A DNA stretch of 64,000 nt from Microbacterium soli (GTDB lineage: Bacteria; Actinomycetota; Actinomycetes; Actinomycetales; Microbacteriaceae): NCBI RefSeq assembly GCF_039539005.1, contig NZ_BAABCP010000001.1, forward strand, positions 558,001 through 622,000, given 5' to 3'. Below, in pieces: positions 5,314-38,441 of this stretch; the first letter of the stretch is position 1, and the number at the start of each line of letters is the position of its first letter. A program made the translations under genes and the position numbers. The notes under the pieces are model-generated. The model was not told where the DNA came from, searched no databases, and worked only from the letters and a program-made list of their open reading frames with translations.

Positions 5314-6131
5314 CCGCCTCCCCCGACGTCCACGTCTCCGTCGACGAGCTGCAGCTGGCGTCCGAACTCGCCGGCGGGCAGGCCCGCGCGGCATCCGCCG
5401 ATATCGCCGAATACGCCCTGTGGCTGGGCGACGACGCGCTGATCCTCTCCCAGCAGCTGGGCGCGTGGATCTCCCGCGCCCCCGAGCTGGAGGAGGACGT
5501 GGCGCTGACCAACATCGCCCTGGACCTGCTGGGGCACGCCCGCTCCCTGCTGCGGTACGCCGGTTCCTGGGACGGCCGCAGCGAGGACGATCTGGCGTAC
5601 TTCCGCGACGAGCCGGAGTTCCGCAGCGCCTGGATCATGGAGCAGCCCAACGGGGACTTCGCCCAGACCATCGCCCGCCAGCTGATCGCATCCGTCTACA
5701 TGTACGAGCTGTACACGGCGCTGCGCGCCTCGACCGACGACACCTTCGCCGCGATCGCGGAGAAGGCCGTCAAAGAGGTCGACTACCACCGCGACCACGC
5801 CGTGCAGTGGGTGCTGCGCCTGGCCGACGGCACCGACGTCTCGCGCGAGAAGATCATCCGGGCCCTGCGGGACGTCTGGCCGTACGCGGACGAGCTGTTC
5901 CGCGACGAGCCGCTCATCGACCGCCTGGGCGACGCCGCCGCGCGTCCGTCGGCGCTGCGCGCCGGCTTCGACGCCGTCATCGACGAGGTCCTCGCCGAGG
6001 CGCGGCTCGCACGCCCCGACATCGCCGCCTCCCGTGCGGGCGGACGCCACGGCGCGCATGCCACGCCGATGGGGCATCTGCTGGCCGAGATGCAGGTGCT
6101 GGCCCGACGGCATCCGGGAGCGACGTGGTGA
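5310..6131 (+). CDS. paaC: 1,2-phenylacetyl-CoA epoxidase, structural subunit C
   Basis: A 273-residue helical subunit of the ferritin-like fold that pairs with PaaA but carries no functional diiron centre. Conserved features include DDALILSQQLGAWISRAPELEED near residues 33-55 and EVDYHRDHAVQWVLRLADGT near 155-175. The GTG start overlaps the paaB stop (GTGA at 5310-5313). Family assignment is secure from sequence and operon position. The C-terminal region is a little longer than in enterobacterial PaaC. Confidence 0.95.
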   Translation: MTASPDVHVSVDELQLASELAGGQARAASADIAEYALWLGDDALILSQQLGAWISRAPELEEDVALTNIALDLLGHARSLLRYAGSWDGRSEDDLAYFRDEPEFRSAWIMEQPNGDFAQTIARQLIASVYMYELYTALRASTDDTFAAIAEKAVKEVDYHRDHAVQWVLRLADGTDVSREKIIRALRDVWPYADELFRDEPLIDRLGDAAARPSALRAGFDAVIDEVLAEARLARPDIAASRAGGRHGAHATPMGHLLAEMQVLARRHPGATW

Positions 6132-27128: not shown

Positions 27129-28307
27129 TCAGCGCCGACCCGCGGCCTCCTTCGAACCGTCCGTCCCGAAGGGCGTGCTTCCCAGCAGCGGCTGCGTTCC
27201 GACGGCGTCGCGCAAGCGCCACACGGTCTCGGTGAAATAGCTGTCGCCCACGATCACGGCGCTGTTCTCCCCGACCCCGTGGCCGTGGGGCACATCCAGT
27301 GCGGCACCGCGCAGGATGCCCAGTCCCCCATGGCCGACGACGTAGCCCGCTGCCAGCGCACCGGCCATGTCCGCGGTGTACCGACGCAGGCTGTCCGCGC
27401 GCTCCGGCGAGCTCCAGGCGGCCAGTTCCAGCAGACCGGCGTGCGCGAGGCTCGCCGCGAACGAGTCGCGGATCAGCGGCTCCCCCTCGGGCAGCGAGAA
27501 ATCCCAGACGGGAGACGGATCGTCCTGCACATGATCGATCCAGAAATCCGCCATGGCGTCCGCCCGCTCCCGGTGCGCGGCATCGCCGGTGAGCGCGTGC
27601 AGCATGGCGTAACCGTAGATGCCCCAGGCCAGGCCACGCGACCAGCATCCGTCCTCGGCGCGGCCCTGGTAGGTTCCCGTGCCCGCGACGGTGCCGTCCG
27701 ACGCGAACCGCAGCACCTGCGAGGTCGACCCGTCGGCGCGGATGAGCCGGTCCGCGATGACGGCGGCGGCGTCGCGCACGGCCTGGGCGAGCCGATCGTC
27801 TCCGGTCCGTGCGGCGTACCAGAAGGGGATGCAGAGATTGATCACATCGTCGATGGTCGTGAACGGGAAGCGCATGTCCTCCTGCTCGCCGAAGGACTTC
27901 ATGTATCCGATCCGGAGGAACCGCTGCGAGATCGTCGCGGCAGCCGCCTCCAGCATCGGCAGGAGCTCGGCGGCGCCGTGCGCGCGCAGCGGCACGAGAG
28001 CACCGCGGAAGAACATGTGCGATACGGAGGCGAAGCTGGTGATGTCGGTGCGGTTCTCCAGGCGCCGACTCCACCGCAGCGCCCGCTCCCGTGCAGAGGG
28101 GTCGTCGTCGTGCGCGACGAACCAGGTGATGGACGGCAGATCCCCCGCCATCCAGGACCCGTCATGAGGCATGATGCCGCGGTCGCCCCGATCCAGAGGG
28201 GCTGTCACCCATGCCTCGCCGTCTGTCCACAGCGGGAAGGCCGCCGAGTCCGCCATGACCCGGGTCTTCGCGACCACGCACTGCCATGCTTCATCCAAGA
28301 TCGTCAC
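27129..28307 (-). CDS. GH88-like unsaturated glycoside hydrolase
   Basis: A 392-residue (alpha/alpha)6-barrel protein of the unsaturated glucuronyl hydrolase family (GH88). Landmarks are DGSWMAGDLPSITWF near the N-terminus, DDVINLCIPFWYA, the GTYQGRAEDGCWSRGLAWG active-site segment, and RDSFAASLAHAGLLELA. Such enzymes hydrate the 4,5-double bond of unsaturated uronyl residues, so the sugar falls apart. There is no signal peptide, so it acts in the cytosol on imported material. The GTG start at 28307 overlaps the CoA-transferase stop (GTGA), making it the last gene of the ten-gene unit. No polysaccharide lyase is nearby, so the real substrate may be another unsaturated glycoside. Confidence 0.78.
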   Translation of the reverse strand: MTILDEAWQCVVAKTRVMADSAAFPLWTDGEAWVTAPLDRGDRGIMPHDGSWMAGDLPSITWFVAHDDDPSARERALRWSRRLENRTDITSFASVSHMFFRGALVPLRAHGAAELLPMLEAAAATISQRFLRIGYMKSFGEQEDMRFPFTTIDDVINLCIPFWYAARTGDDRLAQAVRDAAAVIADRLIRADGSTSQVLRFASDGTVAGTGTYQGRAEDGCWSRGLAWGIYGYAMLHALTGDAAHRERADAMADFWIDHVQDDPSPVWDFSLPEGEPLIRDSFAASLAHAGLLELAAWSSPERADSLRRYTADMAGALAAGYVVGHGGLGILRGAALDVPHGHGVGENSAVIVGDSYFTETVWRLRDAVGTQPLLGSTPFGTDGSKEAAGRR

Positions 28308-29476
28308 TTGTTCTGCTTTCTGATTCGGTGGGTGATGAGTTCCGTGTGCTCGCCCAGGCGGGGGGCCGGTCCGCTCGGCCCGACGCGGGATCGGGACATC
28401 CTGAAGGGCGTGTTCACGATGCGCAGCCCTCCGATCTCCGGATCGGGGACTTCCGGGAACGAGTTCCTGGAGCGGGCGGGTTCGCTGTCGGCGACGTCCC
28501 GCACGGCGCGCACCGGGCCGGTCGGGATGCCCGCGGACTCCAGCCTTCGCACGGCTTCGTCGCGACCGCCGACGCTCCGCGCCCACCGCTCGATGGCATC
28601 CTTCACCCGGTCCCGCTGCGCGAGCCGTCCGTCGTTCGTGGCGAGATCCGGCGCGCCGGCCGTCTCCGGTCCGAGCAGCGCCGCCAGCCGTGCCCACAGC
28701 CGATCCGTCCCTGCGGCGAGGACGAAGTACCCGTCGCCGGCGTTGTACACGCCGTAGGGCTCGACGGCACGGTGCTCCAGACCGTTGCGCGTCGGATCGA
28801 CCTGACCGCCCCCGACCTCCACCTCGAGGAAGGCCGTCTCGTGGAAGGGAAGCGCTGCATCGAACAGCGCGATGTCGAGGTGCTCACCGACACCGTCTCC
28901 GCGATCCCGCCGGTACAGCGAGGTGAGGATCGCCGCATAGGCGTGGATCCCGGCCGAGACGTCGGCGACGGAGATCCCGAGAGGCACGGGCGGTCCGTCG
29001 GAGAAGCCGGTCATGTCGATCGCCCCCGAGTACCCCTCGGCGACGATGCCCTGGCCGGGCCGGCCGGCGAAGACGCCGGTCGCTCCGAAGGCGGAGATCG
29101 ACGCCATGATCAGCCGCGGATTCTCTGCTGACAGGTCGCCGTAGCCCAAGCCCTTCGCCGTCAGTGATCCGGGGCGCATGTTCTCCACGAGCACGTCGGC
29201 GTCCCGCACGAGGTCGCGTACCAGGGCGACGCCGTCCGCGGTGCGCAGATCGGCGACGACGCTGAGCTTGCCCGCGTTCAGATTGATGAAGTAGCCGCTG
29301 CGGTCCCGTGAGATCACCGGTGGCAGCCCGCGCGAGGGGTCGCCCCCGGGCGGTTCGATCTTGACGACCTCCGCCCCCGCGTCGGCCAGCAGCCGAGTGC
29401 AATAGGGCCCCGCGAGGATCTGTGTCAGATCCACGACCCTCACGCCGGCCAGGGGCGCACGATCCCCGCCTGCCAT
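28304..29476 (-). CDS. CaiB/BaiF-type (class III) CoA-transferase
   Basis: A 390-residue family III CoA-transferase. It shows VRVVDLTQILAGPYCTRLLADAGAEVVK at the N-terminus (landmarks DLTQILAGP and GAEVVKIE), ENMRPGSLTAKGLGY, and the catalytic Asp in ISVADVSAGIHAYAAI. It moves CoA between carboxylic acids without ATP. The start at 29476 is preferred because gaggagg then sits 6 nt upstream; from the ATG at 29482 the spacing would be zero. It lies between the aldehyde dehydrogenase and GH88 genes. The substrate acid is unknown; a hydroxycinnamate or other enoic acid would make sense with the hydratase of the same unit. Confidence 0.88.
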   Translation of the reverse strand: MAGGDRAPLAGVRVVDLTQILAGPYCTRLLADAGAEVVKIEPPGGDPSRGLPPVISRDRSGYFINLNAGKLSVVADLRTADGVALVRDLVRDADVLVENMRPGSLTAKGLGYGDLSAENPRLIMASISAFGATGVFAGRPGQGIVAEGYSGAIDMTGFSDGPPVPLGISVADVSAGIHAYAAILTSLYRRDRGDGVGEHLDIALFDAALPFHETAFLEVEVGGGQVDPTRNGLEHRAVEPYGVYNAGDGYFVLAAGTDRLWARLAALLGPETAGAPDLATNDGRLAQRDRVKDAIERWARSVGGRDEAVRRLESAGIPTGPVRAVRDVADSEPARSRNSFPEVPDPEIGGLRIVNTPFRMSRSRVGPSGPAPRLGEHTELITHRIRKQNK

Positions 29477-29551
29477 TCGCATCCTCCTCGTCGATCCGGT
29501 GGCACGTTCCTGTGCCGCGTCCGCATGCAGCGGTCGGCTGCCTGCTGCTCT

Positions 29552-31051
29552 TCAGTCGCGCAGTCCGAACGTTCCGGAGCGATCGCCCGTCCGGATCTGC
29601 ACCGCCTTCAGCTGCGTGAACTCCTCGAACCCGGCGCGACCCATCTCCCGGCCGTGGCCCGACGCCTTGTATCCCCCGAAGGACAGCTGCGGCGACCCGT
29701 CGATCGTGGTGTTGACGTAGACGGTGCCGCTGCGCAGTCGGCGCATGACCGTGAGGGCCCTGCCGAGGTCGGAGGTCCAGATGGTGTTGGCGAGGCCGTA
29801 GGCGACTCCGTTGGCCAGCTGCACCGCCTCCTCGGCGGTGTCGAAGGTCGTGACGGTCAGGACCGGCCCGAAGATCTCCTTCTGAAAGGCATCCGTCTCC
29901 GGTGCGACATCGGCCAGCACCGTCGGCGAGAGGAAGAGTCCCCCGGCATGCGCCGGGTCCTCGAGACGCGTGCCACCGGTCAGCAGCACGGCGCCGTCCT
30001 CCCGAGCATGCTCCACCGCCTGCAGGACGTTCTCGAGATGACGTTCGTGGATCATCGCCCCGTAGTCGGCATCGATCTCGGCCCCGCCGACGCGCAGTCG
30101 CCGAGTGCGTTCGACCAGACGCCGATCGAACTCCTCGGCGATGGTGGACTGCACCAGCAGTCGGGCGCCCGCGACGCAGCATTCGCCCTGGTTGTGGGTG
30201 GCCCCGAAGACCACGCCCTCGACCGCCGCATCGAGATCGGCATCGGCGAAGACGATCTGCGAGGCCTTGCCGCCCAGTTCCAGCGACGTCTTCTTCAGGT
30301 TCGTCTTGGAGGCCTCCAGCACGCGCCTGCCCGTGGCGGTCGACCCGGTGAACGTGATCATGTCCACATCGAGATGCTCGGCCAGCGCCTGACCGGTCTC
30401 GCCCTCCCCGGTCACCACGTTGAACACCCCAACGGGCACGCCGGCATCGAGGGCGAGCTCGGCCAGTCGCAGCGCGGATCCCGATGTGAACTCGGAGGGC
30501 TTGACGACGACCGCGCATCCGGCCGCCAGCGCGAACGCGACCTTCTGGCAGAGGATCAGCAGGGGGAAGTTCCACGGCACGATGGCGCCGACCACGCCGA
30601 TCGGCTCGCGAACCAGGAGTCCGGTGAAGTCCGTGCCGAGGTTCGTGTGGATGTCGCCGTGATCCGTCGATGCGAGGCCGGCGGCGAACTCCATCAGGGC
30701 GATCGCGGTACCGGTGTCGTTCATCGCGACGCGCAGCGGTTTGCCGCCCTCGTCCGCGTCGAGTCGCGCCAGTTCCTCACGGTGCTCGGTCATCAGATTC
30801 GCGAGACGGGTGAGGATGCGCATCCGGCCCATGCCGTCCATGTCTGACCAGACCCCGGAGTCGAAGGCACGGCGCGCTGCGGCGACCGCGTCATCGACAT
30901 CGTCACGCGTCCCCCTGGCGTACCGGGCGATGAGGACCCCGGATGCGGGATTCCACCGCTCGAACGTCTCCGCCTCATCACCGGGCACGATGCGACCGTC
31001 GATGAGATGGCCTCGACGTACCGGAGTGCGGGTGTCGGATGTGTTCATCAT
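29552..31051 (-). CDS. NAD(P)-dependent aldehyde dehydrogenase
   Basis: A 499-residue aldehyde dehydrogenase superfamily enzyme. The oxyanion-hole Asn lies in VPWNFPLLILCQKVA, the NAD-binding segment is FTGSTATGRRV, the general base is in SLELGGKA, and the nucleophilic cysteine pair is in NQGECCVAGARL. It resembles betaine-aldehyde/phenylacetaldehyde-type dehydrogenases more than HpaE. It starts at ATGATG (31051) 5 nt after the enoyl-CoA hydratase stop. In the unit it would oxidise an aldehyde released by the hydratase or by sugar oxidation; the substrate is inferred. Confidence 0.88.
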   Translation of the reverse strand: MMNTSDTRTPVRRGHLIDGRIVPGDEAETFERWNPASGVLIARYARGTRDDVDDAVAAARRAFDSGVWSDMDGMGRMRILTRLANLMTEHREELARLDADEGGKPLRVAMNDTGTAIALMEFAAGLASTDHGDIHTNLGTDFTGLLVREPIGVVGAIVPWNFPLLILCQKVAFALAAGCAVVVKPSEFTSGSALRLAELALDAGVPVGVFNVVTGEGETGQALAEHLDVDMITFTGSTATGRRVLEASKTNLKKTSLELGGKASQIVFADADLDAAVEGVVFGATHNQGECCVAGARLLVQSTIAEEFDRRLVERTRRLRVGGAEIDADYGAMIHERHLENVLQAVEHAREDGAVLLTGGTRLEDPAHAGGLFLSPTVLADVAPETDAFQKEIFGPVLTVTTFDTAEEAVQLANGVAYGLANTIWTSDLGRALTVMRRLRSGTVYVNTTIDGSPQLSFGGYKASGHGREMGRAGFEEFTQLKAVQIRTGDRSGTFGLRD

Positions 31052-31056
31052 GCTGT

Positions 31057-31869
31057 TCAGCCCTTCTGCCGGGTGGATGCGTCCGGCCTGTGCCGCGCGA
31101 GGAAGGAGCGGACGGCCTCCCGCTGCGGACCGCTGCCGCAGCAGGCCTGCACGCCCAGCCGCTCGGCGCGCTGCCCGGCATCGGCTCCGGCGGACTGCCC
31201 GATGCGGACCGCCTGCTTGATCGCCGAGACGGCCCGCGGTGATCGCGTGGCCAGCAGCCGGGCGAGTTCTTCTGCGCGTCCGATCAGCGCACCTTCGGGG
31301 ACGACCTCCGTGATCAGCCCGTAGTCCAATGCGGTCGCGGCGTCGATCGGCAGCCCGGTGAGCATCATCGCCATGGCCCGGCCCATGCCGATCGTGCGCG
31401 GCAGCCGCTGAGTGCCTCCCCAGCCCGGCGTGTTGGCGAGGGTGATCTCCGGCTGGCCGAAGCGCGCGCCCTCTGAGGCGATGCGCAGGTCGCAGGCGAG
31501 TGCGAGCTCCAGGCCGCCGCCGAGAGCGGCGCCGTTGATCGCCGCGATCACCGGCACGGGCAGATCCGCCAGCTGATCGAAGACGAACTGACCCGCGGCG
31601 GCGAATTCGTACGCCGCCGGGCCCTCCAGGTTCTCGAGTTCGGCCACATCCGCCCCCGCGCTGAACGTGCGTCCTGCGCCCGTGACGATCACACAGCGCA
31701 CGGAATCGTCGCTGTGCGCGGCGGAGACGGCGGCGTTCAGGTCGCGGAACACCGCCGCGCTGAGCGCATTGGCCTTGTGCGGACGGTTGACGGTCAATGT
31801 CAGGATGCCATCCTCGGCATCGGCGTCGACGAGTGCGCTCGTCGGGCCCGTGGTCGGATTCCAGCTCAT
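31057..31869 (-). CDS. Enoyl-CoA hydratase/aldolase-type crotonase
   Basis: A 270-residue crotonase. Both hydratase glutamates are present (GGGLELALACDL and FGQPEITLANTPG), so a real hydration step is expected, in contrast to the PaaG-like protein at 7857. The oxyanion loop is SAGADVAELEN. The start ATG overlaps the upstream small-subunit stop (ATGA). Co-operonic CoA-transferase and aldehyde dehydrogenase make a ferulate-like side-chain cleavage (hydration plus retro-aldol to an aryl aldehyde and acetyl-CoA) or a beta-oxidation step plausible. Sequence alone does not decide between them. Confidence 0.87.
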   Translation of the reverse strand: MSWNPTTGPTSALVDADAEDGILTLTVNRPHKANALSAAVFRDLNAAVSAAHSDDSVRCVIVTGAGRTFSAGADVAELENLEGPAAYEFAAAGQFVFDQLADLPVPVIAAINGAALGGGLELALACDLRIASEGARFGQPEITLANTPGWGGTQRLPRTIGMGRAMAMMLTGLPIDAATALDYGLITEVVPEGALIGRAEELARLLATRSPRAVSAIKQAVRIGQSAGADAGQRAERLGVQACCGSGPQREAVRSFLARHRPDASTRQKG

Positions 31870-32351
31870 CGTGTCGTCCTTCCCCGGGAGGGCTCGTCCT
31901 GTCCGGAGTCGGCGACGGAGGAAGACGCGGCCCCGATCGGACGGTAGCGAGGCCCGGCCGAGATCACGGCGTCCAGCAGGTCGGCGTAGTCGGGAGCGAC
32001 CTGGGCGGACAGCGGATGCGGGGTCGCGCCGTCATAGCCCAGTTGCGCCGTGACGGCCGGGTTGAGGAAGTATGCGCCACGGATGAGCAGATAGAGTCGG
32101 TCGAAGCGCGCGGGTGCGGTCCGCTCCCAGTCCGCGAGCACCGTCCCGGCCGGGGTGCCGTCGGCGACCGCCTCCGCCGCCGCCTCCAGCACCGGAGCCA
32201 GATCCGGGCGAAGGCCGATCGCCCGGTCCAGGAAGACGCCGGGAACCCCCGCCTGGGACGCGGCGAGCGCCCCGTCCGCCGCCGGGATCATGGCGTCGGC
32301 GATCCGCGCGATCCGCGCATCGCGCTCGGCGGCCGACCGCTCGTCACTCAT
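31866..32351 (-). CDS. Small subunit of the GMC dehydrogenase (gluconate 2-dehydrogenase subunit 3-like)
   Basis: A 161-residue helical protein with RIARIADAMIPAADGALAAS at the start, the pattern of the small partner subunits of sugar dehydrogenases of the GMC type, and a mid-protein FDRLYLLIRGAYFLNPAV segment. Many such subunits carry a Tat signal; this one has none, so the complex should be cytosolic. It overlaps the GMC gene end by 8 nt and the hydratase start by 4 nt. The partner role is inferred from position and helical pattern. The last 30 residues are low complexity. Confidence 0.65.
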   Translation of the reverse strand: MSDERSAAERDARIARIADAMIPAADGALAASQAGVPGVFLDRAIGLRPDLAPVLEAAAEAVADGTPAGTVLADWERTAPARFDRLYLLIRGAYFLNPAVTAQLGYDGATPHPLSAQVAPDYADLLDAVISAGPRYRPIGAASSSVADSGQDEPSRGRTTR

Positions 32352-33999
32352 CGCGCGCCCCCTTCGTCATGCGGGCCGCGAGGTGGTCCGCGCATCGCAG
32401 CGCGAGGGCGGCGATCGTGGCCGTGGGGTTCATTCCGGATGAGGTGGGCCAGATGCTTCCGTCGAAGATGTGAAGTCCCCGTACGTCATGCGCCTGTCCC
32501 CAGGGGTCGACGACGGACCGACGGGCGTCGGTGCCCATCACCGCCGTGCCCAGCAGGTGCCACCCGCTCTCCCTGATCTGCGGCGCGATGATGATCTCCG
32601 TGGCCCCCGCCGCGCGCAGCGCCTCCGACATCCTCTCGTTGTGCCAGTCGAGCATCCTGTGCGAGTTCTCGCTGGTACGGTAGACGAGTCTCGCGGCGGG
32701 CAGGCCGTCGTCGTCCGTGGCGTTCGGGTCCAGCTCCACCCGATTGGACTCCTCCGGCAGGTCCTCCCCGCAGCTGACCCAGAGCATCGAGCGGCCGAGT
32801 CGTCGTCGCAGCTGCCGATGGAAATCCTCACCCCAGATCGACGTCATGGTCCACGGATATGCGCCGGTGACCCGTTGCGGTCCGCCCGTGGGCTGCAGGC
32901 CCCACTTCGCCCCGCGGATGAACCCGCGGCTCGGGTCGGACTCGTAGAACTCCAACGAGTACAGGCACTGGCCCCATGAGCCGCGCTCCGTGCCGAGGTC
33001 CTCGTCGAAGAGGCCGATCACGGCACTGGCCGGGTGCATCATCAGGCGTCTTCCGACCAGTCCCGATGAGTTCGCCAGACCGTCCGGATGCTCTGCAGAA
33101 GCCGACATCAGCAGGAGCCGCGGTGTGCCGACTCCGTTGGCGCAGAGGATGACGGCGCGAGCGGGCTGCGCATGGAGCGCCCCGTCTCGAGCGATGTACT
33201 CGACGCCGGATGCGGCGCCGTCCCCATCCGTCATCACTCGGGTCGCACGGGCCCGGGTGCGCAGCTGCACGCCGGCGGCGACGAGATCCGGCCAGTGCGT
33301 GACATCGACCGTGCATTTGGAATTGTCCGCACTGCCCCACATGCAGTCGCCGCGCTGCACGGAGGGGGACAGGTGCCGGTACGGACGTGTGGCGATGGCG
33401 TTGGTCCCCGGCCACCAGTGCCAGCCGAGGCCGTTCATGGCCTCGGCGACCTTGCGTCCGCCCGGCCCCAGGGGCACGGGGGGCATCGGATATCCCCGCG
33501 CATCCGGATACGCGGGGTCGCCGTCCAGACCGGAGATGCCGAAATCCGCCTCGACCTGCTCGTAGAAGGGCACCAGATCCTCGTAGGTCATCGGCCAGTC
33601 GTCCCCGACTCCGTCGAGGCTGCGGACACGGAAATCGGACGGGGCGTTGCGCATCCACTGGGAGGCGTACACGACGGCGCTCCCGCCCACGCCGTTCCAC
33701 ATCAGCGCGGCGACGTCGGAGTCCGCATCATCGATCGGATAGTCGGCGGCACTGCGCCTGAGGTTCGGATTCCACTGCCAGTCCTTGTCCTGACGCAGTT
33801 CGAAGTCGTCGTGGCCGCCGCGGGAGTTGCTCCGATCGGGCCAATCCCCGCGCTCGAGCACACAGGCGCGCAATCCCGCCTCGTGCAGGCGCTTCGCGGT
33901 CACCGCCCCCGAGGGCCCTGCACCGACGATGCAGACGTCGACGGGCGGATCGACCGTCACCGGACGAGTCGCTGCGGTGGGGTGCGACATCGATGTCAT
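32344..33999 (-). CDS. GMC-family FAD-dependent sugar/alcohol oxidoreductase
   Basis: A 551-residue GMC flavoprotein. The FAD Rossmann motif is VCIVGAGPSGAVTAKRL near residue 22, the second GMC signature is MWNGVGGSAVVYASQW, and the catalytic His lies in ESGWHLLGTAVMG with Asn in SSGMNPTATIAAL. There is no signal peptide. Relatives with a small subunit oxidise sugars, for example glycosides at C3. In this unit it would act on the imported glycoside. The start at 33999 overlaps the permease stop as ATGA. A second ATG at 33990 has better ribosome-site spacing (gaaggg, 9 nt) and is a real alternative. Confidence 0.88.
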   Translation of the reverse strand: MTSMSHPTAATRPVTVDPPVDVCIVGAGPSGAVTAKRLHEAGLRACVLERGDWPDRSNSRGGHDDFELRQDKDWQWNPNLRRSAADYPIDDADSDVAALMWNGVGGSAVVYASQWMRNAPSDFRVRSLDGVGDDWPMTYEDLVPFYEQVEADFGISGLDGDPAYPDARGYPMPPVPLGPGGRKVAEAMNGLGWHWWPGTNAIATRPYRHLSPSVQRGDCMWGSADNSKCTVDVTHWPDLVAAGVQLRTRARATRVMTDGDGAASGVEYIARDGALHAQPARAVILCANGVGTPRLLLMSASAEHPDGLANSSGLVGRRLMMHPASAVIGLFDEDLGTERGSWGQCLYSLEFYESDPSRGFIRGAKWGLQPTGGPQRVTGAYPWTMTSIWGEDFHRQLRRRLGRSMLWVSCGEDLPEESNRVELDPNATDDDGLPAARLVYRTSENSHRMLDWHNERMSEALRAAGATEIIIAPQIRESGWHLLGTAVMGTDARRSVVDPWGQAHDVRGLHIFDGSIWPTSSGMNPTATIAALALRCADHLAARMTKGARDE

Positions 34000-34937
34000 C
34001 CCTTCGTGGATCCGAGAGTCAGTCCTGCCACGAACTGCTTCTGCAGCAGGATGAAGATGACGAGTGTGGGCAGCGCCGCCAGCAGTGCGGCGGCCGCGAT
34101 CATGTTCTGGTTCGCGACGAACTCGCCCTTCAGGTCCGTGAGCGCGGAGGTGATGGGGCGCAGTCTGCCCGTGGAGATCAGGCTGATGGCCCAGAAGAAG
34201 TCGTTGTAGATCCAGGTGGTCAGCAGCGTCGCCAGTGCGGCGAGTGCGGGTCGGATGGTCGGGAGTGTGAGGCTCCAGTAGCGCGTCCACAGTGAGGCGC
34301 CGTCGACGATCGCGGCCTCGTACATCTCCTGGGGCACCGTCTTCATGTAGTTGCTGAGCACGAACACGCAGAAGCCCATCTGGAAGATCACGTTGATGAC
34401 GATCAGGCCGAAGATCGAGTTGTACATGTACCCGCTGGGGCTGAGGAACGCCGGCAGCGGGATCATCAGATACAGCCGATACAGCGGTGTGATGATCACC
34501 TGCTGAGGGAGCAGGTTCCCCGCCGTGAAGAGGATCAGCAGCGCCAGATTGAGCTTTGAGCTGCGCCTGCTCACCACGAAGGCGATGGCCGATGCGAAGA
34601 AGAGCGTCACGACCACTGCCGGGGCGGTGATGACGAACGAGTTCCAGAAGTAGCCCAGGATGTTCGACTGCCGCCAGGCCTCGATGAAGTTCGTCAGGGT
34701 GAGGCTGTGCGCGATGGAGACATAGCCGTACTTGTTCGTCTCCTCGATCGGGCGCAGACCGACGTAGAGCGCGAAGACGACGGGAAGCAGCCAGATCAGC
34801 GCGACGCTCAGCATGAACAGCTCGGCGACGATCTGCCAAGGACGCCGGCGTCGCCGACGTCGTGGTCGCTGCTCCGCCCGGACGTCGTTCGAGGGCCGGG
34901 CGGCGTGGCGAGGGGCGTGCAGGGTCGGCGTCGTCAT
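33996..34937 (-). CDS. Sugar ABC importer permease, MalG type
   Basis: A 313-residue inner-membrane protein with six helices. The EAA loop that contacts the ATPase reads EMYEAAIVDGASLWTRYWSL. The N-terminus has an unusually basic run (eight Arg in PRRRRRRRPWQ), giving a positive-inside anchor. It overlaps both the partner permease (ATGA) and the GMC gene (ATGA), so transport and oxidation are translationally linked. No ATPase gene is present in the unit. CUT1-family assignment is firm; the sugar is unknown. Confidence 0.9.
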   Translation of the reverse strand: MTTPTLHAPRHAARPSNDVRAEQRPRRRRRRRPWQIVAELFMLSVALIWLLPVVFALYVGLRPIEETNKYGYVSIAHSLTLTNFIEAWRQSNILGYFWNSFVITAPAVVVTLFFASAIAFVVSRRSSKLNLALLILFTAGNLLPQQVIITPLYRLYLMIPLPAFLSPSGYMYNSIFGLIVINVIFQMGFCVFVLSNYMKTVPQEMYEAAIVDGASLWTRYWSLTLPTIRPALAALATLLTTWIYNDFFWAISLISTGRLRPITSALTDLKGEFVANQNMIAAAALLAALPTLVIFILLQKQFVAGLTLGSTKG

Positions 34938-35917
34938 CGCTGTCCCGCTCTCTCGGTCCGGAAGGTCTGCCAGAGGAAGATCGTGATCGGCACCAGGGAG
35001 ATGACCAGGAGGACGACTCCCATCGCCGATCCGAAGCCGATCCTCTTGATCTCCCCGACGATGTTGTTGGTGATGAGCACGGACAGCAGTTCCAGCCCGT
35101 TGTGACCGCGGTTGGTGATGTAGACCAGATCGAAGGCGCGGAGGGATTCGATCACGGTGACGATGAGCACGACGATGTTGATCGGGCGCATCGTGGGGAA
35201 GGTCACATGCCAGAACCGCTGCCACGAGTTCACGCCGTCCAGGGATGCCGCCTCTTTCAGGGCGGGGTCGACGGACTTCAGCCCGGCCAGGTACAGCACC
35301 ATCACATAGCCCGCCTGCCGCCAGCTGGCCTCGATCAGGACCGCCCAGAGGTTGATCTTCGGATTCCCGAGCCAGTCGATCAGGTCGCTGTCCGAGGAAC
35401 GGTCCAGCACGGCATTGACCAGTCCGTAGTTCGACGAGTACATGAATTCCCAGATGATGCCGATGAGCGCCAGCGACAGCAGCACCGGCAGGAACAGGGC
35501 GCTCTGATAGAAGCGACTGCCGCGCACGCCGCTGTCGATGATGAGGGCGAAGAACATCCCGAGCGGCGTCGCGATTCCCATGAAGACGACCAGCCAGATG
35601 AGGTTGTGCCAGACCGCCGGCCAGAACTCCGGGTAGACGGTGGCCGCCTGAACGTAGTTCTGCACTCCGTGGAGACAGCCGTTGCTCAGTCCCGCAGTCA
35701 TCGAGGTGCCCTGGCAGGGGGCCGCCTGCAGCGGTCCGATGCCGTTCCACTTGGTGAAGGACAGCAGGACCGATGCCAGGGCGGGCCCCCAGATGAAGAG
35801 GAACAGGGCGAGCGTCGGAACACCGACGAGTGCTCCGGCCACCCACTTGTCCGTCCGCGTCAGGCGTGACAGCCGATGTCGGCGATGCCTCTTCCCGATC
35901 TGCAGAGTCGACATCAT
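34934..35917 (-). CDS. Sugar ABC importer permease, MalF type
   Basis: A 327-residue permease with an EAA loop (KEAASLDGVNSWQRFWHVTFP, landmark EAASLDG) and six or more helices. A periplasmic-side insertion between helices 1 and 2 carries two cysteines (APCQGTSM and NGCLHG), unusual for this family and possibly disulfide-linked. It starts with ATGATG 6 nt after the binding-protein stop. With the partner permease and Tat lipoprotein it forms a CUT1 importer. Confidence 0.9.
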   Translation of the reverse strand: MMSTLQIGKRHRRHRLSRLTRTDKWVAGALVGVPTLALFLFIWGPALASVLLSFTKWNGIGPLQAAPCQGTSMTAGLSNGCLHGVQNYVQAATVYPEFWPAVWHNLIWLVVFMGIATPLGMFFALIIDSGVRGSRFYQSALFLPVLLSLALIGIIWEFMYSSNYGLVNAVLDRSSDSDLIDWLGNPKINLWAVLIEASWRQAGYVMVLYLAGLKSVDPALKEAASLDGVNSWQRFWHVTFPTMRPINIVVLIVTVIESLRAFDLVYITNRGHNGLELLSVLITNNIVGEIKRIGFGSAMGVVLLVISLVPITIFLWQTFRTERAGQR

Positions 35918-35923
35918 GACGGA

Positions 35924-37261
35924 TCAGGAGAAGATCGTCTTGGCCTGCGCCTCGAGACGCTTCTGGATCGCCAGGATGTTCGAACTGCTGGAGTCCTGGA
36001 TGAAGTCCTGGATACCGGAGAACGCCGCATCCGCCATCGCCGGATCCGTGTCGCGGTCGAGGAACTGCGAGACCGCCTTCTTCGACGCGATCAGTTCGGT
36101 CGACTTCTTCTGGATCGCGTTGTACTGCGCCGTGTCGATGCCCGTGGCCATGCCGACGTCCCACTGATCGGTCTTCAGGTAGGTGGCTTCGGCCTGTGCC
36201 GTGCCGAGGTACTCCAGCACCTTCTTCGCACCCGTCACGTTCTTGGCCTTGGCCGCGCACATGTAGCCATCCGCCGGAGCCTCCATGAAATCCGTCCCGT
36301 ACTGGGAGTTCACGGTCGGGAATTCGAAGAAGTCCAGGTCGGGCAGGTTGTCCGGCGAGTAGTTCGCACCGACCTGGTTCGACCCCTGGAACATCATCCC
36401 GGCGTTGCCGTTCTCCAGGTCCTTCGCCGCGTCCTGCCAGATGCGGCCGTTCGCCCCGTTCTGGCAGTACGGCAGCAGCTCGGCGTAGTGGTCGAAGACA
36501 TCGGTGACGCCCTTGTCCGTCCACGGGATCTCGTGCCGCATGAGCTGCATGTGGTAGTCGTATCCGTTGATGCGCAGGTCGAGCGTGTCGAAGAACCCGC
36601 ACCCCGGCCACAGATCCTTGTCGGCGAAGGCGATGGGCACCAGGCCGTCCGCCTTCATCTTCTTGGCGAGCGCGATCAGCTCGTCCCATGTCGTCGGGTC
36701 GGTGTAGCCCCGCTCCGTGAAGACGCTCTGATTGTGGAAGAACACCCACGGGTAGTTGTACATCGGCACGAAGTAGTAGTGCCCGTCGAGGCCCTTCGAC
36801 AGAGCGTGGGCGGCGGAACCGAAGTTGTCTCCGATGGCGTCCCAGACGTCGTCGATCGGCGTGGCGAGGCCCTGGTTGGCGAAGAAGGCCATGCGGAAGC
36901 CCGCGAACCAGGTGAACAGGTCGTCGGGGGTGGCCTGCAGGTAGTCGCTGATGCTGCTCTTGAAGGTCTCATGATCGACGAGATTGAGGGAGATGTCGAG
37001 CCCGGTCTTCTGCGCCGCCTCGTCGATGAGCGACTTCTGCGACTCCTTCACACCGGGGTTCGAGTTGTAGGAGCCGACCGTCACCTTCGTGTCGCCGTCG
37101 GCGCTTCCGCTGCGTCCGGAACCGCCGGCACCGGGGCTGCTGCAGGATGCCAGGGCCATGCTCGCCGCGCCGAAGAGCGTCGTCGCGGCGAAGCCGCCGA
37201 GCAGGGTCCTCCTCGTCATCAGATGGCGTTGAGAGTATGCGCGCAATTCCGAGTCGTTCAT
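35924..37261 (-). CDS. Tat-exported sugar ABC binding lipoprotein
   Basis: A 445-residue extracellular solute-binding protein. The N-terminus carries a twin-arginine motif (LMTRRTLLGGF) followed by a hydrophobic stretch and a lipobox (ALASC), so it is exported folded and lipid-anchored. The body has the CUT1 binding-protein layout (VGSYNSNPGVKESQ; FTWFAGFRMAFFANQG; TWDELIALAKKMKADG). It is the first structural gene of the ten-gene unit. A gaaagg site precedes the ATG at 37261. Palindromic TTTGGC/GCCAAA operators lie upstream at 37322-37356. Confidence 0.92.
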   Translation of the reverse strand: MNDSELRAYSQRHLMTRRTLLGGFAATTLFGAASMALASCSSPGAGGSGRSGSADGDTKVTVGSYNSNPGVKESQKSLIDEAAQKTGLDISLNLVDHETFKSSISDYLQATPDDLFTWFAGFRMAFFANQGLATPIDDVWDAIGDNFGSAAHALSKGLDGHYYFVPMYNYPWVFFHNQSVFTERGYTDPTTWDELIALAKKMKADGLVPIAFADKDLWPGCGFFDTLDLRINGYDYHMQLMRHEIPWTDKGVTDVFDHYAELLPYCQNGANGRIWQDAAKDLENGNAGMMFQGSNQVGANYSPDNLPDLDFFEFPTVNSQYGTDFMEAPADGYMCAAKAKNVTGAKKVLEYLGTAQAEATYLKTDQWDVGMATGIDTAQYNAIQKKSTELIASKKAVSQFLDRDTDPAMADAAFSGIQDFIQDSSSSNILAIQKRLEAQAKTIFS

Positions 37262-37321
37262 GCTCAACCTTTCAGGACGTCGTCGTCGAACTGCCTCTTG
37301 GTTGCGACCATGCCCGAAATG

Positions 37322-37356
37322 TTTGGCAGACATTACTGCCGTTTGGCTGGGCCAAA
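37322..37356. promoter_or_regulatory. Paired palindromic operators before the importer/GMC unit
   Basis: TTTGGC-tgg-GCCAAA (37342-37356) is a perfect 6-bp inverted repeat. Exactly 20 bp upstream another TTTGGC begins (37322), overlapped by GGCAG (37325-37329) and CTGCC (37336-37340) as a second dyad. Two sites two helical turns apart, in the gap between the IclR gene and the binding-protein gene, mirror the arrangement at 16074-16108. They are probably bound by the IclR protein encoded at 37443-38312. Confidence 0.6.
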
Positions 37357-37442
37357 TCAGCGTTACATCATCGTTATCGACGGTGCGGCCTGCGCTGGAA
37401 CCCGATGCGCTGCCTGCCCGCGCCGTCTTCTCGACGCCGACG

Positions 37443-38312
37443 TCAGATCGACCGGTGCGCTCCCCCGCGACGGCTCTCCCAGTCGCGGCGGGCCGTCGGC
37501 TGATACCCCAGGCGCTCCTCGATCGCGTGCACGGCCGCGGTGAGCGGAGGCAGATGCTGCTGCACGGTCTGCTGATTGAGGCGGGTCGACATGCCGACGA
37601 TGGTGAGCGCCGCCACGGCACGCCCACGATAGTCGTGCACCGGCATGGCGACCGAGCAGAGGCCGACCTCGCCCTCCTGCCAGCACGTGGCGAATCCTCG
37701 GCGCCTGGACCTGTCGAGCTCGTGCCGCAGCAGTTCGGGGTCCGTGATCGTCGCCGAGGTCAGCGCCGGCAGGCGCTCATGCAGCACCCGATCGTAGAAC
37801 ACGGGGTCAGCCCCGAACGCCAGCAGCACTTTCCCCGATGCCGTGGCGTGCAGAGGGAACCGGCGACCCGTGTTCGCCGTCACTCGGAACGGCGATGGCG
37901 CCTCACCGCGGTCCAGGTAGAGCACCGAGTCCTCGTCGAGGATGCCCAGCAGCACGAACTCCGAGGTCTCCGACGCGAGGCCGTCGAGGTAGTGCCGCGC
38001 GACGCGGGTGACCTCGACGCTGTTGGCGACCGAGGATCCCAGTTCGTACAGTCCCCAATCCAGCCGGTACGCACCGGTCACCGGATCCCGTGTCACGAAT
38101 CGCCGGGTCTCGAGCGTGGCCAGCAGGTGATACACCGCGGCTTTGCTCATCCCGCTCCGGCCGGCGATATCGGCCAGGCCGAGCCCGCGGGGCGCGGCCG
38201 CGATCACCTGCATGACGTCGATGGCGTGGTCGACCGACCTGACTCTGCGGGACCGTGGTCCCGGAGTGGCCGCCGCCGAGGCATCCTGCTCGTCCGCGTC
38301 GGGACTGATCAT
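37443..38312 (-). CDS. IclR-family transcriptional regulator
   Basis: A 289-residue regulator with a ~25-residue Ala/Ser-rich N-terminal tail. The winged helix follows (VDHAIDVMQVIAAAPRGLGL, recognition region MSKAAVYHLLATLETRRFV), then an IclR ligand domain (RFPLHATASGKVLLAF; RRRGFATCWQEGEVGLCSVA). It lies immediately upstream of, and in line with, the importer/GMC unit, from which it is separated by 181 nt with paired palindromes. The start at 38312 is preferred because the longer frame (38381) has no conserved sequence. The inducer is probably a metabolite of the imported compound. Confidence 0.88.
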   Translation of the reverse strand: MISPDADEQDASAAATPGPRSRRVRSVDHAIDVMQVIAAAPRGLGLADIAGRSGMSKAAVYHLLATLETRRFVTRDPVTGAYRLDWGLYELGSSVANSVEVTRVARHYLDGLASETSEFVLLGILDEDSVLYLDRGEAPSPFRVTANTGRRFPLHATASGKVLLAFGADPVFYDRVLHERLPALTSATITDPELLRHELDRSRRRGFATCWQEGEVGLCSVAMPVHDYRGRAVAALTIVGMSTRLNQQTVQQHLPPLTAAVHAIEERLGYQPTARRDWESRRGGAHRSI

Positions 38313-38441
38313 GGCTGTTCCCGTCTGGTGCACCACTCGCTTCGCGTCAAGTGTCGCACAGACTCGTCGTCGCCGGTCCATGGGCGGAGCGCGACCGGGA
38401 TCCCCCGTCGGTGCGCGGAGACCCCAGTCCGTCGCCCCCGG

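What the first reader, a model, noticed from the sequence alone, without database searches (positions are those of the whole stretch)
27129..38312. Ten-gene unit linking sugar-type import, GMC oxidation, CoA chemistry and a GH88 hydrolase: candidate undescribed pathway
Seen: an unbroken minus-strand run with mostly 4-8 nt overlaps holds an IclR regulator, a Tat binding lipoprotein, two permeases, a cytosolic GMC oxidoreductase, a small subunit, an enoyl-CoA hydratase with both catalytic Glu residues, an aldehyde dehydrogenase, a CaiB-type CoA-transferase and a GH88-like hydrolase. Known: GMC/small-subunit enzymes oxidise sugars, sometimes at C3 of glycosides. CoA activation, hydratase and aldehyde dehydrogenase shorten hydroxycinnamate side chains. 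GH88 opens unsaturated sugars by hydration. Inference: a glycosylated phenylpropanoid or similar conjugate is imported whole. The sugar is oxidised and eliminated, the unsaturated sugar hydrated, and the acyl part handled as a CoA ester. I know of no described pathway with this gene set.
Basis: partly seen in the sequence, partly recalled or inferred. Interest (0 to 1): 0.75.

Follow-up and report, generated by a model that had tools for sequence, protein, structure and literature searches.

The report
CoA-assisted sugar-cleaving operon with GH88 enzyme
A soil-type actinobacterium carries a conserved gene set that probably oxidises a sugar at its end carbon, activates it with coenzyme A, removes water and then cleaves it with a hydratase-type glycosidase, a route to break sugars that I found no description of.

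Summary
The ten-gene minus-strand unit is real and recurs in the same order in another genus (60-79% identity). Other clusters, one of them elsewhere in this genome, keep the same chemistry around a GH88 protein while swapping unrelated enzymes: alcohol oxidiser (GMC or Fe-ADH), aldehyde dehydrogenase, CoA-transferase (family III or I), enoyl-CoA hydratase, GH88. Two continue with a 2-keto-3-deoxy-sugar-acid kinase and aldolase. Proposed mechanism: C6-OH to aldehyde to uronide to uronyl-CoA; loss of the beta (C4) OH gives a 4,5-unsaturated uronyl unit, the kind of substrate GH88 hydrates. This would supply GH88 without a polysaccharide lyase. The window's binding protein is about 62% identical to the galactose binder AcbH. 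No step is shown biochemically. The GH88-like protein lacks one of two catalytic Asp; the "small subunit" is inferred from position; the reduction towards KDG has no assigned enzyme. "uronyl-CoA" occurs in none of the 5.39 million open papers searched.

The parts
37443..38381 (-). IclR-family regulator (start perhaps 38312)
   Evidence: PF01614/PF09339; 71% identical IclR at the same place in G069
35924..37345 (-). Sugar-binding lipoprotein of an ABC importer; about 62% identical to the galactose binder AcbH (start perhaps 37261)
   Evidence: PF01547; PDB 3oo6 E 1.6e-162; identity estimated
34934..35917 (-). ABC permease 1
   Evidence: PF00528; 78% in G069
33996..34937 (-). ABC permease 2 (searches used 33996-34910)
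   Evidence: PF00528; 79% in G069
32344..33990 (-). GMC oxidoreductase, no signal peptide seen by eye; proposed to oxidise a primary sugar alcohol (C6-OH) to the aldehyde
   Evidence: PF05199/PF00732; nearest solved: FAD glucose DH 6a2u E 2.1e-58; 77% in G069
31866..32351 (-). Small protein overlapping the GMC gene; possible small subunit (inferred from position only)
   Evidence: no Pfam, NCBIfam, PDB or good fold match; 62% over 115 aa in G069
31057..31869 (-). Enoyl-CoA hydratase; proposed to dehydrate uronyl-CoA (C4-OH is the beta-hydroxyl)
   Evidence: PF00378; both catalytic Glu in 9 of 9 cluster ECHs aligned; nearest solved: 3-hydroxypropionyl-CoA dehydratase 5zai
29552..31051 (-). Aldehyde dehydrogenase; proposed aldehyde to carboxylate (uronide)
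   Evidence: PF00171; Cys and Glu motifs kept in 6 of 6 aligned; 73% in G069
28304..29482 (-). Family III (CaiB) CoA-transferase; proposed to load and recycle CoA on the uronide
   Evidence: PF02515; Asp at the expected motif in 7 of 7 cluster CaiBs aligned
27129..28307 (-). GH88-like (alpha/alpha)6 protein of a distinct subfamily (GH88L); proposed to hydrate the 4,5-unsaturated uronyl unit

Best explanation
The unit encodes import and breakdown of a hexopyranose, most likely a small galactoside, by a CoA-assisted route to GH88. (1) The ABC importer brings in the neutral sugar. (2) GMC, perhaps with the small protein, oxidises C6-OH to the aldehyde. (3) ALDH makes the uronide. (4) CaiB makes uronyl-CoA. 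(5) ECH, acting as dehydratase, removes the C4-OH, the beta-hydroxyl of this acyl-CoA, giving a 4,5-unsaturated uronyl-CoA. (6) CaiB passes the CoA to the next uronide. (7) The GH88-like enzyme hydrates the enol ether, opens the ring and releases the aglycone; whether before or after step 6 is open. (8) The 4-deoxy-5-keto-uronate goes to a 2-keto-3-deoxy-sugar acid, then kinase and aldolase. Shown by sequence: families, catalytic residues (with one loss in GH88L), conservation, co-occurrence, enzyme swaps. Inferred: every reaction, the carbon oxidised, the substrate.
For: Whole unit conserved in another genus. In 8 of 126 fetched GH88 loci an ECH and a CoA-transferase lie within 8 kb of the GH88 (the window is a ninth). 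Unrelated enzymes swap at two steps: GMC for Fe-ADH and CoA-transferase III for I, around ALDH, ECH and GH88. Embleya L170 holds sugar ABC, ALDH, family I CoA-transferase, ECH, GH88, KDPG/KHG aldolase, PfkB kinase nearest KDG/KDGal kinases, and a GMC on one strand. L020 holds ECH, ABC, CaiB, GH88L, DgoK, KDPGal aldolase. In G069 a broken KDPG-aldolase remnant follows GH88L (23.9 bits, under the cut-off). Of 114 loci with neither ECH nor CoA-transferase nearby, 17 carry the same aldolase and/or kinase types, so the product type agrees with ordinary GH88 pathways. Clusters where the oxidation pair was not found include L163 with a TRAP and L166 with a Tct importer. ECHs keep both Glu in 9 of 9. 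This genome has 18 ECH and 10 CaiB matches in 3.1 Mb, yet both GH88 genes found in it have one of each nearby. It also has a PfkB kinase nearest KDG/KDGal kinases beside a KDPG aldolase.
Against: No biochemistry. GH88L lacks the Asp equivalent to UGL Asp88 (S94 in 34 of 34 aligned), and UGL His193 aligns with Gln197. No KduI in this genome and no reductase assigned for the step to KDG. L165 has ALDH but no GMC or Fe-ADH found. L169 and L021 have a CoA-transferase but no ECH found nearby. L020 and L169 lack the oxidation pair as far as seen, yet have sugar-type ABC importers; L020 starts at a contig end 1 kb before its ECH and L021 1.4 kb before its GH88, so missing genes there prove little. 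The kinases and the Embleya aldolase score under the NCBIfam curated cut-offs. Recalled: ECH eliminates syn, which suits gluco better than galacto configuration. Monosaccharide-type binding proteins allow a free sugar, for which GH88 would be less needed. The GH88L unit is rare: only the own genome among 198 of the genus.
Confidence: 0.6

Rival explanations
1. One reading: a glycosylated phenylpropanoid (or similar acyl conjugate) is imported; GMC oxidises the sugar at C3, the sugar is eliminated and GH88 hydrates it, while CaiB, ECH and ALDH shorten the acyl part as a CoA ester.
For: GMC enzymes do oxidise glycosides at C3 (abstract starts; passages); ECH plus ALDH occur in hydroxycinnamate pathways (recalled).
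Against: ECH/CoA-transferase/GH88 recur in L163 without ALDH, and in other clusters with changed importers. No acyl-CoA ligase or aromatic gene among the ten. ECH not above 152.5 bits for the hydratase-lyase model, cut-off 276. The GMC is nearest to FAD glucose DH, far from CarA 7dve (2.1e-58 against 9.3e-14; 7dve named as MtCarA). No CarB/C-type gene seen.
Confidence: 0.08
2. Same C6-oxidation and CoA-dehydration chemistry, but on a free monosaccharide (galactose for the window): a new galactose-to-KDG route in which the altered GH88L is a hydratase of unsaturated uronate or uronyl-CoA rather than a glycosidase.
For: Binding protein about 62% identical to AcbH, which has high affinity for galactose (PMC3364876 passage); the binding proteins of L129 and L170 are nearest to xylose/ChvE-type monosaccharide binders; active-site changes in GH88L.
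Against: Free uronates have simpler known routes (recalled); the second clusters keep both GH88 Asp residues, which suggests ordinary GH88 glycosidase chemistry there.
Confidence: 0.2
3. The genes serve two adjacent but separate functions (a sugar oxidation set and a short-chain acyl-CoA set) that happen to travel together.
For: ALDH-CaiB gap of 69 nt could hold a promoter; ECH and CaiB are common families in this genome.
Against: Conserved order in another genus and repeated association in separate GH88 lineages.
Confidence: 0.12

Closest known systems
GH88/GH105 unsaturated uronyl hydrolase pathways (lyase, then GH88, then KDG kinase and KDPG aldolase)
   Same: GH88 fold, hydration chemistry expected, KDG-type kinase and aldolase in two of the clusters
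   Different: No polysaccharide lyase found among the ten genes; the unsaturated uronyl unit would be made by oxidation, CoA loading and dehydration; GH88L has a changed active site
C-glycoside 3-oxidase / deglycosidase pathway (CarA, CarB/C; Microbacterium, Pseudarthrobacter)
   Same: A GMC enzyme starts the attack on a glycoside in actinobacteria
   Different: GMC is of the FAD glucose-DH/fructose-DH type; no CarB/C found; CoA enzymes and GH88 instead
Carnitine-type CaiB/CaiD chemistry (recalled) and 3-hydroxyacyl-CoA dehydratases
   Same: CoA-transferase loading plus crotonase-fold dehydration of a beta-hydroxyacyl-CoA
   Different: Proposed acyl group is a sugar acid; coupled to sugar import and GH88
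Polyethylene glycol oxidation (GMC, ALDH, CoA activation; recalled)
   Same: Terminal alcohol to aldehyde to acid to CoA ester
   Different: Followed by ECH and GH88 rather than ether cleavage

Membership tests
GH88 | (alpha/alpha)6 UGL fold | tested here: met
GH88 | Catalytic Asp equivalent to UGL Asp149 | tested here: met
   D153 invariant in 34 of 34 aligned (34 of the 54 database hits); alignment; UGL residues named in PMC4528949 passages
GH88 | Asp equivalent to UGL Asp88 | tested here: not met
   S94 in 34 of 34. PMC4528949 says the equivalent in the GH105 enzymes YesR and RhiN is Asn, so the residue is not absolute there. I call the protein GH88-like, not a GH88 member
GH88 | Hydrolysis of unsaturated uronides | not testable with these tools
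   needs an assay
GH88 | Pfam PF07470 match | tested here: not met
   no family at E 0.001; the paralogues in L129 and L130 match PF07470 just over cut-off
FAD glucose/fructose dehydrogenase complex | GMC catalytic subunit | tested here: met
   6a2u E 2.1e-58
FAD glucose/fructose dehydrogenase complex | Homologous small subunit | tested here: inconclusive
   no sequence or fold match; model only pLDDT 73
FAD glucose/fructose dehydrogenase complex | Cytochrome c subunit | tested here: not met
   no such domain among the ten proteins, two of which have no Pfam match
Family III CoA-transferase | CoA_transf_3 domain and catalytic Asp | tested here: met
   (motif position recalled)
Enoyl-CoA hydratase | Both catalytic Glu | tested here: met
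   (motif positions recalled)
Hydroxycinnamate CoA pathway | Hydroxycinnamoyl-CoA hydratase-lyase (NF006588, cut-off 276 bits) | tested here: not met
   not among the best 25 of 73 families for the window ECH, whose lowest row has 152.5 bits; model and cut-off seen
C-glycoside 3-oxidation pathway | CarB/C deglycosidase beside GMC | tested here: not met
   no such protein among the ten by Pfam or NCBIfam

The most novel reading that the evidence does not exclude
A new kind of glycoside (or hexose) cleavage: instead of a lyase, or a glycosidase attacking C1, the cell oxidises C6, makes a uronyl-CoA, lets a crotonase-fold dehydratase eliminate the C4 hydroxyl, and lets a GH88 enzyme hydrate the resulting enol ether, so that cleavage may not depend strongly on anomeric form or leaving group. 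Uronyl-CoA would be a new class of metabolite, and the route would exist in modules with and without the oxidation step, for neutral sugars and for uronides.
Probability: 0.55. Interest if true: 0.85.

Novelty: new variant of a known kind. Interest (0 to 1): 0.72.

Why it matters
It would explain how bacteria can make unsaturated uronides without polysaccharide lyases, give a role to GH88 genes that sit beside CoA genes, and offer a cleavage method for glycosides that resist ordinary glycosidases. It also predicts a metabolite class, uronyl-CoA, that occurs in no paper of the open library searched and that can be looked for directly.

Tried and rejected

Literature: searches. One search was swamped by 'hyaluronic acid coated' (12 of 1,698 seen, uronoyl-CoA 0 in those) and decides nothing.

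The GH88 tree (quick method) used 50 rows (49 of the 122 extracted proteins, plus L170). It warns that the long branches of L165/L166 and of the window clade may join falsely, so separate lineages rest on the starred sub-branches; the label needed 3 changes, at least 2 forced by starred branches.
Full report

Conservation. In G069, a different genus of the family, all ten genes recur in the same order at 60-79% identity. The GH88L subfamily is rare in the genome samples: 2 of 299 in the family sample (own and G069), 1 of 396 in the order sample (own), 1 of 298 relatives of G069 (G069 itself) and 1 of 198 in the genus (own). Yet 52 of 54 hits in the protein database are at least 50% identical, many from unnamed or metagenome sources. 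Sporadic presence suggests horizontal spread (inference).

The other clusters. The only other GH88 match in this genome (C1:1.08 Mb, 30% identical) lies in another set: GH88, Fe-ADH, ALDH, ECH and CaiB, with two IclR genes and a sugar ABC importer. G069 has its own second set with Fe-ADH, ALDH, ECH, GH88 and a family I CoA-transferase. A plasmid of Embleya sp. NBC_00888 (L170; no annotation in the record) has, on one strand, sugar ABC, ALDH, family I CoA-transferase, ECH, GH88, KDPG/KHG aldolase (PF01081, 122.5 bits), a PfkB kinase nearest to KDG/KDGal kinases (175-206 bits, under the curated cut-offs) and a choline-DH-like GMC. L163 (G578) has GH88, family I CoA-transferase, ECH and a TRAP transporter; ADH and ALDH were not found. 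L020 (a Candidimonas-labelled MAG) has ECH, ABC, CaiB, GH88L, DgoK and KDPGal aldolase; its contig begins 1 kb before the ECH, so an oxidation pair could lie beyond. L165 and L166 have a divergent GH88 between two CaiB matches, ECH and Tct importers. L169 and L021 have GH88 and CaiB but no ECH found; L021 also sits near a contig end.

Counts. Of 126 long GH88 loci examined, 8 have ECH and a CoA-transferase within 8 kb, 3 have a CoA-transferase only (L021, and L169/L176, one place fetched twice) and 1 has ECH only. These loci were chosen as GH88 relatives and are not a random sample; G000 and G069 contribute two clusters each, counting the window. This genome has 18 ECH and 10 CaiB matches (fragments included) in 3.1 Mb, so finding one of each within 8 kb of both of its GH88 genes is unlikely by chance (my rough density estimate: about 0.005 per GH88). 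Alcohol oxidiser and ALDH are together in window, L019, L129, L130 and L170; both were not found in L020, L163, L166, L169 and L021; L165 has ALDH alone. Other ADH families would have been missed by my tblastn queries. The five with the pair have sugar ABC importers. Of the five without it, L163 has TRAP, L166 has Tct, L020 and L169 have sugar-type ABC, L021 none identified; L165 has Tct.

Why this gene set makes sense as one route. Oxidising C6 of a pyranose gives a uronide. Its CoA ester has C5 as alpha carbon and the C4-OH as beta-hydroxyl, so it is a 3-hydroxyacyl-CoA, the normal substrate type of an ECH run as dehydratase. The product, a 4,5-ene with the ring oxygen on C5, is the enol ether that GH88 enzymes hydrate (mechanism: PMC4528949 passages). 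ECHs keep both Glu in 9 of 9, CaiBs the expected Asp in 7 of 7 and ALDHs their Cys and Glu in 6 of 6 aligned; motif positions are recalled. The nearest solved ECH is 3-hydroxypropionyl-CoA dehydratase. The kinase and aldolase in L170 and L020, and the broken aldolase remnant after GH88L in G069 (23.9 bits, under the cut-off, plus my reading of the frames), fit a 2-keto-3-deoxy-sugar-acid product. Of the 114 GH88 loci with neither ECH nor CoA-transferase nearby, 17 carry the same aldolase and/or kinase types. This genome holds a PfkB kinase (178 bits to a KDG/KDGal kinase model, cut-off 440) with a KDPG aldolase at C1:1.16 Mb, but no KduI.

Substrate. The window's binding protein is about 62% identical to AcbH over 326 aligned residues. 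AcbH has high affinity for galactose rather than acarbose (PMC3364876 passage; the title of Licht et al. 2011 was seen only in reference lists). So galactose or a small galactoside is the best guess. Recalled ECH stereochemistry (syn) sits less well with the galacto configuration.

What is odd about GH88L. Against UGL, Asp149 is kept (D153), but Asp88 aligns with an invariant Ser94, Phe46 with an invariant Asp56 and His193 with an invariant Gln197 (UGL residues named; positions counted by me on the printed alignment). The second clusters L129, L130, L163 and L169 keep the His-Asp motif. So the window subfamily has a reworked active site; it may act on the CoA ester, or D56 or D154 may stand in for Asp88. 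This is inference.

Print search. GMC oxidoreductase with GH88, ECH and CoA-transferase: 0 papers. GH88 with CoA transferase, gene cluster and aldehyde dehydrogenase: 0. 'uronyl-CoA' anywhere in a word: 0. GH88 with ECH: 3, off-topic by title and abstract start. UGL, ECH, CoA transferase, iron ADH, any two: 253, of which 12 were seen and none named UGL. Most subscription papers and all bioRxiv preprints are outside this library. Related GMC work (PMC10807413, PMC10646112; passages only) concerns C3 oxidation, with no CoA step in the passages found.

Verdict. A single CoA-assisted route to GH88 explains most of the conserved pattern and is testable with purified enzymes.

Noticed in passing
L129:4910-10887 (G000:C1:1077910-1083887): Second GH88 / Fe-ADH / ALDH / ECH / CaiB cluster in the same genome, outside the window.
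   Followed up: yes
L019 about 5480-5630: Broken remnant of a KDPG aldolase right downstream of GH88L in G069.
   Followed up: partly
L165:5707-14874, L166:8341-13518: Divergent GH88 flanked by two CaiB matches with Tct-type importers, and in L165 an acyl-CoA dehydrogenase and a 2-hydroxyacid dehydrogenase: possibly a related carboxylate pathway.
   Followed up: partly
L021:1364-4129: Chloroflexota GH88 beside a CaiB (48% to the second cluster's CaiB), with pheST further along and no other pathway gene identified on the contig.
   Followed up: partly
L026:51-2031: Chloroflexi GH88 directly followed by a KduI-family gene.
   Followed up: no
L163:6360-7922: Sulfatase-family gene two genes upstream of GH88 in the TRAP-type cluster; may point to a sulfated uronide.
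   Followed up: no
G000:C2:217121-270152: Several ECH and CaiB matches close together on contig 2, perhaps another acyl-CoA catabolic island.
   Followed up: no
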